Assembly (NCBI GenBank): GCA_963169455.1
Contig: CAUJDW010000158.1
Span: 1 to 64,000, forward strand
Direction: 5' to 3'
Length of the DNA stretch: 64,000 nt
Source: Bacteroidota bacterium
Lineage (GTDB): Bacteria; Bacteroidota; Bacteroidia; Chitinophagales; Saprospiraceae
Shown here in pieces: positions 38,416 to 39,594 of this stretch (its first letter is position 1; the number at the start of each line of letters is the position of its first letter). The translations under genes were made by a program, and so were the position numbers. The notes beneath the pieces are model-generated. The model was not told where the DNA came from, ran no database searches, and saw only the letters and a list, made by a program, of their open reading frames with translations.

Positions 38416-39594
38416 ATGCCCGGAATCTACTTCCATATCCCTTTTTGCAAGCAGGCCTGCCACTACTGCAACTTTCACTTTTCCACCTCGCTCAGGAACA
38501 AGGAAGCGATGTTGCCGGCCATGTTGCGGGAGCTGGATCTGCGGAAGGATTACCTGAAGGAAAAGGAACTGGACAGCATTTACTTCGGCGGCGGCACCCC
38601 CAGCCTGCTCACGGCGGCAGAACTGATGCTTTTTTTCGACGCCATCGGCAAATACTTCACCCTCCGGCCCGGCGCCGAAATTACCCTGGAGGCCAACCCC
38701 GACGACCTCACTGCCGAAAATATCCGCGCCCTGCGCGACACCCCCGTCAACCGCCTGAGCATCGGCATTCAGTCCTTCCGGGAAGAAGACCTGCGGTTTT
38801 TCAACCGGGCCCACAACGCCGCACAGGCCCGGGCCTGCCTGGAAAAGGCCCTGAGCGCCGGTTTTTCCAACCTGACCATCGACCTCATTTACGGCGCTCC
38901 TACTACCAGCGACAAGCATTGGGCGGAAAACCTCGACATTTTTTTCAGCTACGGCATTCCCCATCTTTCCAGCTACGCCCTGACAGTGGAAGCACGAACC
39001 GCCCTGGCTCATTTCATCAATACCGGCAAGGCCCCGGCAATCGATGAGGAAAAAACCGCCCGGCAGTACGAATACCTCCTGGCCTCCATGAAGGCGCACC
39101 ATTATATACATTACGAAATTTCAAACTTTGCCCTGCCCGGCCACTTCGCAGTGCACAACTCCAGCTACTGGCGGGGCGAAGCCTACCTCGGCATCGGCCC
39201 CAGCGCCCACAGCTTCAACGGCGAAAGCCGGCAGTGGAACGTGGCGAATAACGCCCACTATATCCGCCTCCTGGCAAACCCGACAGGTTTGCCAAACCTG
39301 TCGGGTTTGCCCGAGGTATTCGAAATCGAATACCTTTCGCCCGCCACCCGCTACAACGAGTATGCCATGACCGGCCTGCGCACCATCTGGGGGGTGGAAC
39401 TTTCCCGCCTGCGGCAGATGGGGGCGGAATACGAAAGCTATTTCCTGAGCCACATCCGGCCCTTCCTCGAAACCGGCCTGGCAGAACAGGAGGGCGGCAT
39501 CATCCGCCTGACCGATGCTGGCAGCCTGATGGCGGATGGTATCGCCTCCGCCGTATTCATCGTAGGCAAGGATGACTTAAGCCGCAATCCATAA
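38416..39594 (+). CDS. hemW: Radical SAM coproporphyrinogen III oxidase-like protein / heme chaperone HemW
   Basis: GIYFHIPFCKQACHYCNFHFST (CxxxCxxC), YFGGGTPSLL, GIQSF, LGIGPSAHSF. Confidence 0.94.
   Translation: MPGIYFHIPFCKQACHYCNFHFSTSLRNKEAMLPAMLRELDLRKDYLKEKELDSIYFGGGTPSLLTAAELMLFFDAIGKYFTLRPGAEITLEANPDDLTAENIRALRDTPVNRLSIGIQSFREEDLRFFNRAHNAAQARACLEKALSAGFSNLTIDLIYGAPTTSDKHWAENLDIFFSYGIPHLSSYALTVEARTALAHFINTGKAPAIDEEKTARQYEYLLASMKAHHYIHYEISNFALPGHFAVHNSSYWRGEAYLGIGPSAHSFNGESRQWNVANNAHYIRLLANPTGLPNLSGLPEVFEIEYLSPATRYNEYAMTGLRTIWGVELSRLRQMGAEYESYFLSHIRPFLETGLAEQEGGIIRLTDAGSLMADGIASAVFIVGKDDLSRNP
39273..39311. repeat. Perfect palindromic repeat inside hemW
   Basis: GGCAAACCCGACAGGTTTG-C-CAAACCTGTCGGGTTTGCC, 19-bp arms, 1-nt centre, 39 bp = 13 codons. 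Confidence 0.85.

What the first reader, a model, noticed from the sequence alone, without database searches (positions are those of the whole stretch)
39273..39311. 39-bp perfect palindrome inserted in frame within hemW
GGCAAACCCGACAGGTTTG-C-CAAACCTGTCGGGTTTGCC is 13 codons long and encodes the stretch around NPTGLPNLSGLP. It falls in a variable stretch between NNAHYIRLLA and EIEYLSPATRYNEY. As I recall, Bacteroidota HemW proteins have only a short linker there. This resembles protein-coding palindromic elements such as the Rickettsia palindromic elements, which spread within ORFs without breaking the frame.
Basis: partly seen in the sequence, partly recalled or inferred. Interest (0 to 1): 0.82.

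Follow-up and report, generated by a model that had tools for sequence, protein, structure and literature searches.

The report
Transposase-linked palindrome lodged inside hemW
A short mirror-image DNA repeat, of a kind that resembles repeats thought to be copied by a small transposase and that normally sits between genes, lies in frame inside a heme-chaperone gene, and sister bacteria carry traces of other such insertions at the same spot.

Summary
The palindrome is real: 19-bp perfect arms around one base at 39273-39311, in frame in an intact HemW (392 aa). It is a doublet of a 15-bp unit, AAACC-N5-GGTTT, in inverted orientation with a 3-nt spacer. The same doublet occurs at about 28 other places in this 6.8-Mb genome. 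Nearly all are intergenic, and most abut a stop codon; one overlaps the 3' end of a predicted gene. hemW is the only mid-gene case. Arrays of the unit flank a REP-associated tyrosine transposase (RAYT) gene in this genome. Most of the 30 closest Bacteroidota RAYT genes examined carry 15+3+15 palindromes beside them (22-23) or in frame inside their own coding sequence (18-19). The hemW element is therefore best read as a REPIN-type element of a Bacteroidota RAYT system, inserted in frame into a disordered loop. The family is mobile intergenic DNA, not an ORF-specific element, so the Rickettsia-RPE analogy is only partly right. Intragenic REPs and in-frame REPs inside RAYT genes are already published; this is a GTAG-less variant. 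The least expected point: one sister-genus hemW has a probable decayed REPIN at the same linker, and another an unrelated dispersed inverted repeat, suggesting a recurrent insertion site.

The parts
38416..39594 (+). hemW (radical SAM heme chaperone), intact 392-aa ORF that hosts the element
   Evidence: PF04055, PF06969, TIGR00539 above cut-off
39273..39311 (.). 39-bp perfect palindrome (REPIN-type element), in frame, encoding ANPTGLPNLSGLP
39276..39290 (+). REP unit 1, AAACC-CGACA-GGTTT
39291..39293 (.). 3-nt spacer GCC between the two units (3 nt is the modal spacer of the family)
39294..39308 (-). REP unit 2, inverted copy AAACC-CGACA-GGTTT
39314..39335 (.). second, 9-bp-arm hairpin directly downstream (AGGTATTCG-AAAT-CGAATACCT), inside hemW, codes for VFEIEYL; possibly local arm matching by template switching
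   Evidence: inference

Best explanation
The palindrome is a REPIN-type element: two 15-bp REP-like units (AAACC-N5-GGTTT) in inverted orientation with a 3-nt spacer. It belongs to a family associated with a Bacteroidota RAYT, a single-domain HUH tyrosine transposase (TnpA_REP). The inferred mechanism is that the RAYT recognises the hairpin in single-stranded DNA and copies or moves the doublet. Insertions survive mostly just past stop codons. The usual doublet is 33 bp (11 codons) and is usually stop-free in at least one frame, so it can also survive as a small in-frame loop. In hemW it did so between helix 279-287 and strand 302-306, where the added residues form a low-confidence, probably exposed loop and leave the enzyme intact. 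The perfect arms are probably kept by quasi-palindrome template switching or by recent insertion. Shown here: family membership, intergenic distribution, transposase linkage, and in-frame copies in the RAYT genes themselves. Inferred: mobilisation by RAYT, neutrality of the loop, the way the arms are kept identical.
For: There are 29 loci in this genome with paired AAACC-N5-GGTTT units (43 matches; reversed-pattern control 0). Of the 28 outside hemW, 27 are intergenic, many within 3-40 nt of a stop codon, and one (L111:10585) overlaps the predicted 3' end of a gene. Three-copy arrays with the same core flank a 208-aa gene on C113, whose product matches REP_Tyr_transpos NF047646 (E 1.9e-11, below the curated cut-off). 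In another genus a RAYT is flanked on both sides by AAACCCGACAGGTTT-TTA-AAACCTGTCGGGTTT, the hemW 15-mer (G443). Of the 30 best RAYT loci, 22-23 have 15+3+15-type palindromes within about 200-300 nt and 18-19 have one in frame inside the RAYT ORF, against 0.15 expected after codon shuffling and 2 of 60 control windows. The RAYT-internal copies are read in the same frame as in hemW (DLTGFENLSGL or DLTGFQNLSGL versus NPTGLPNLSGL). Family presence and RAYT presence are associated across 399 Bacteroidota (34 of 56 versus 95 of 343, p = 2.2e-6, not corrected for relatedness). The AF2 model has mean pLDDT 90.5 but drops to 55 over residues 291-300.
Against: No RAYT with the CGACA core was found in this genome; its RAYTs carry other cores (CGCGA; a TCTNA-type core inside a longer palindrome) or unrelated palindromes. 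No empty hemW site from a close relative was available, so the exact insert boundaries are unknown (net 8-12 residues against close homologues). The element lacks the GT[AG]G foot of classical REPs. The C113 RAYT match stays below the curated cut-offs of PF01797 and NF047646. RAYT presence is not required: 22 of 56 genomes with the family had no RAYT hit. No transposition was shown.
Confidence: 0.85

Rival explanations
1. A protein-coding palindromic element like the Rickettsia RPEs, adapted to spread within ORFs.
For: In frame, stop-free in all six frames, 39 nt, in a surface loop; in-frame copies also occur inside RAYT ORFs.
Against: 27 of the 28 other family loci in this genome are intergenic and the 28th overlaps a predicted gene end; none of 20 loci in G567 is mid-gene.
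Confidence: 0.07
2. A de novo quasi-palindrome made locally by replication template switching inside hemW, with no mobile element involved.
For: Arms are perfect and the adjacent 9-bp hairpin 39314-39335 suggests local arm matching; template switching is known to create and perfect hairpins (PMC8794818, PMC8604942).
Against: The same 15-mer stands between sdhA and sdhB and beside a RAYT in another genus, and the family is dispersed.
Confidence: 0.04
3. A functional RNA or DNA signal, such as a transcription attenuator or terminator-like hairpin selected inside hemW.
For: Very stable RNA hairpin (z -8.0); the family sits at gene 3' ends, like terminators and REPs.
Against: It lies mid-gene, upstream of the conserved HemN_C domain; the other HemW DNA linkers scored (67-77) lack it; tandem direct copies and RAYT linkage are not expected of plain terminators.
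Confidence: 0.04

Closest known systems
REPIN / BIME elements mobilised by RAYT (TnpA_REP); Bertels & Rainey 2011 PMC3116915, Nunvar 2010 PMC2817692
   Same: Inverted doublets of short imperfect palindromes, dispersed, extragenic and next to stop codons, in arrays, flanking a Y1 HUH transposase gene.
   Different: No GTAG foot; unit only 15 bp with a 3-nt spacer; in this genome the 5-bp core differs from locus to locus; copy number is low (29 loci).
TnpA_REP subclass 2.6 / RAYT group 5 of Bacteroidetes, flanked by 'atypical secondary structures' (PMC6006769)
   Same: Phylum, absence of GTAG, YIH[QN]NP-like motif, C-terminal SS motif, flanking hairpins repeated elsewhere in the genome.
   Different: That paper calls in-frame REPs inside the transposase gene unique to subclass 2.4; here 18-19 of 30 Bacteroidota RAYTs have one. 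The assignment to 2.6 rests on motifs, not on the authors' profiles.
Intragenic GTAG/CGTC REPs, including RPE-4 and RPE-6 of Rickettsia conorii (PMC3733652)
   Same: REP dimers in frame inside genes, adding 20-30 residues, thought to be neutral when in linkers.
   Different: Those tags are absent here; hemW is the host gene and the insert is about 13 residues.

Membership tests
REPIN / REP family | Short palindromic unit dispersed through the genome | tested here: met
   29 loci in the own genome, control 0
REPIN / REP family | Units paired in inverted orientation, able to form a hairpin | tested here: met
REPIN / REP family | Mainly extragenic, near gene 3' ends | tested here: met
   27 of 28 other loci intergenic, one overlapping a predicted gene 3' end; only two in divergent gaps
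REPIN / REP family | Flanks a RAYT gene | tested here: met
   C113; G443, same 15-mer as hemW
REPIN / REP family | GT[AG]G tetranucleotide foot (classical REPs) | tested here: not met
   the units run from AAACC to GGTTT with no GT[AG]G at the foot; subclass 2.6 REPs are reported as atypical (PMC6006769)
REPIN / REP family | Bound, cleaved and mobilised by the RAYT | not testable with these tools
   needs biochemistry
RAYT group 5 / TnpA_REP subclass 2.6 | HUH, YIHxNP and C-terminal SS motifs; Bacteroidota | tested here: inconclusive
   alignment: MPNHFHF, YIHKN(A) or YIHNNP, WPFSSY, WQ region not conserved; the authors' profiles were not available
RAYT group 4 / TnpA_REP subclass 2.4 | In-frame REP between the HUH and Tyr motifs | tested here: met
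RAYT group 4 / TnpA_REP subclass 2.4 | Cognate REPs with a GT[AG]G foot | tested here: not met
   flanking and internal palindromes of these RAYTs lack it
Rickettsia palindromic element (RPE) | Family found largely inside ORFs in frame | tested here: not met
HemW | Radical SAM plus HemN_C domains, HemW equivalog | tested here: met
   the fold matches HemN 1olt

The most novel reading that the evidence does not exclude
The hemW linker is a recurrent landing site. In this genome it holds an AAACC-type REPIN. In one sister-genus genome (G567) it holds a decayed AGACC-type REPIN. In another (G640) it holds an unrelated dispersed inverted repeat (GAGRTGACAYCTCC). Linker peptides of several other Saprospiraceae HemWs are also unusually compatible with a palindromic coding sequence (P0059, P0046, P0045, P0024). 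This would mean that unrelated REP-type elements repeatedly insert in frame at one codon-scale site, by target preference or because that loop alone tolerates them.
Probability: 0.4. Interest if true: 0.6.

Novelty: new variant of a known kind. Interest (0 to 1): 0.45.

Why it matters
It ties a class of GTAG-less 15+3+15 palindromes in Bacteroidota to RAYT genes and shows that they can become part of a housekeeping protein. hemW also gives a natural series (perfect, decayed and unrelated elements at the same loop) for testing how REP-type elements seed new protein segments, and whether RAYTs are still active there.

Tried and rejected
Exact 15-mer search alone made the palindrome look nearly unique; relaxing the core revealed the family. 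A literature search for hypervariable palindromes in Bacteroidetes found nothing relevant, and one for Phaeodactylibacter palindromes gave only one lagoon-survey paper that mentions both words once. The genome-contig scan with HemW returned no close Phaeodactylibacter DNA, so no empty site could be shown. An assembly artefact was considered and rejected: HemW P0001, at 95% identity and from separate records, carries the insert. The first orientation-blind scan of RAYT loci undercounted internal copies and was redone.

Full report
Observation. The palindrome at 39273-39311 is exactly as described: 19-bp perfect arms around one base. It lies in an intact 392-aa HemW ORF, 38416-39594. It starts at a third codon position and encodes ANPTGLPNLSGLP. 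Its six frames are all stop-free.

Family. The exact 15-mer AAACCCGACAGGTTT occurs at only one other place in the 6.77-Mb genome, as three alternating copies between succinate dehydrogenase flavoprotein and iron-sulfur genes. Allowing mismatches exposed a family AAACC-N5-GGTTT. Paired units occur 43 times in 29 loci, against 0 for the reversed control pattern. The core differs between loci (18 distinct cores in 29 loci) but is the same within a locus in 27 of 29, against a permuted mean of 2.0 and maximum of 8. One sister-genus genome (G567) instead has one almost fixed unit (AAACCTTTGAGGTTT) with a variable 3-nt spacer. The modal doublet is 33 bp, that is 11 codons.

Location. By a simple codon-usage gene call, 27 of the 28 loci outside hemW are intergenic and usually abut a stop codon. 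The 28th (L111:10585) lies in the predicted 3' end of a gene. Only hemW has a mid-gene copy. In G567 none of 20 is mid-gene.

Transposase. A weak Y1_Tnp match on C113 is a 208-aa protein whose gene is flanked on both sides by three-copy arrays. Its best curated match is REP-associated tyrosine transposase NF047646, E 1.9e-11, below the cut-off. Of 399 Bacteroidota genomes 129 have a homologue and 56 have the paired palindromes. The two are associated, 34 of 56 versus 95 of 343, p = 2.2e-6. That count treats related genomes as independent. In G443 a RAYT is flanked on both sides by the hemW 15-mer in doublet form. Among the 30 best RAYT loci, 22-23 have such doublets within about 200-300 nt and 18-19 have one inside the ORF, in frame, between the HUH motif and the tyrosine. 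The expectation from codon shuffling is 0.15. The encoded peptides (DLTGFENLSGL, NLQGFKNLGGL) are read in the same frame as in hemW. Other RAYTs of this genome (C95, C104, C64) have their own palindromes.

HemW. The insert is present in a 95%-identical HemW (P0001). HemWs at about 74% identity, several labelled Phaeodactylibacter, have related-looking peptides at the same site (DLPGFENLASLL, NETGFENLPRLA), and more distant ones have a short linker. Among the 67-77 HemW DNA linkers scored only the window's is palindromic. In G567 the best match of a REPIN consensus in the 4-kb locus is the hemW linker, 24 of 33 against a shuffled maximum of 20, with arms still pairing at 10 of 15. In G640 the linker holds an unrelated inverted repeat, GAGGTGACATCTCC and its partner, which recurs as inverted pairs elsewhere in that genome, 19 hits against 5 control hits. 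A test of which linker peptides could be encoded by a palindrome puts the window, P0001, P0059 and P0046 on top and P0045 and P0024 among the next few, though 106 linkers were tested. The model shows the insert as a low-confidence loop in an otherwise confident HemN-like fold.

Interpretation. The element is best read as a REPIN-type element of a GTAG-less Bacteroidota RAYT system that inserted in frame into a tolerant loop. Mobilisation is inferred from the literature on RAYTs (PMC2817692, PMC3116915), not shown. In-frame REPs inside genes and inside RAYT genes are published (PMC3733652, PMC6006769). The variant features are the 15+3+15 plan without GTAG, the locus-specific core, and the repeated use of the hemW linker. 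Core agreement within loci fits template-switch homogenisation (PMC8794818, PMC8604942; abstracts only) or recent amplification of each array; the data do not separate these.

Noticed in passing
window 53355-53404: A 50-bp perfect palindrome (25-bp arms, no spacer) about 50 nt after a stop codon; unrelated sequence, terminator-like or another REP family.
   Followed up: no
L114:7817, L123:19233, L129:15787, L130:212, L311: A second dispersed palindrome family (AGGGATTCCATCCCTTAAGGGATGGAATCCCT) in the same genome; its RAYT on C104 is preceded by a copy and seems to carry in-frame copies (DGIPGSDGIPEG) in its ORF.
   Followed up: partly
L310 (G000:C95) and L312 (G000:C64): Two more RAYT-like genes with their own flanking palindromes: ACGTTTACTAAACCTTAGAGGTTTAGTAAACGT and AGCCACCCCGTGACA-type arrays.
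   Followed up: partly
L274 / G640:C395:6979-7030: hemW of a sister-genus genome has an unrelated dispersed inverted repeat in the same linker.
   Followed up: partly
L105:5985, L109:6709, L111:6019, L112:4987: In several loci the element overlaps the predicted gene end and may supply the stop codon or the last residues.
   Followed up: no
HemW proteins P0040, P0045, P0046, P0062: Linkers with hexapeptide pseudo-repeats (VPHLGGVAHLNE, VAHLEGVPHLSS) that a different palindrome could encode; DNA not available.
   Followed up: partly
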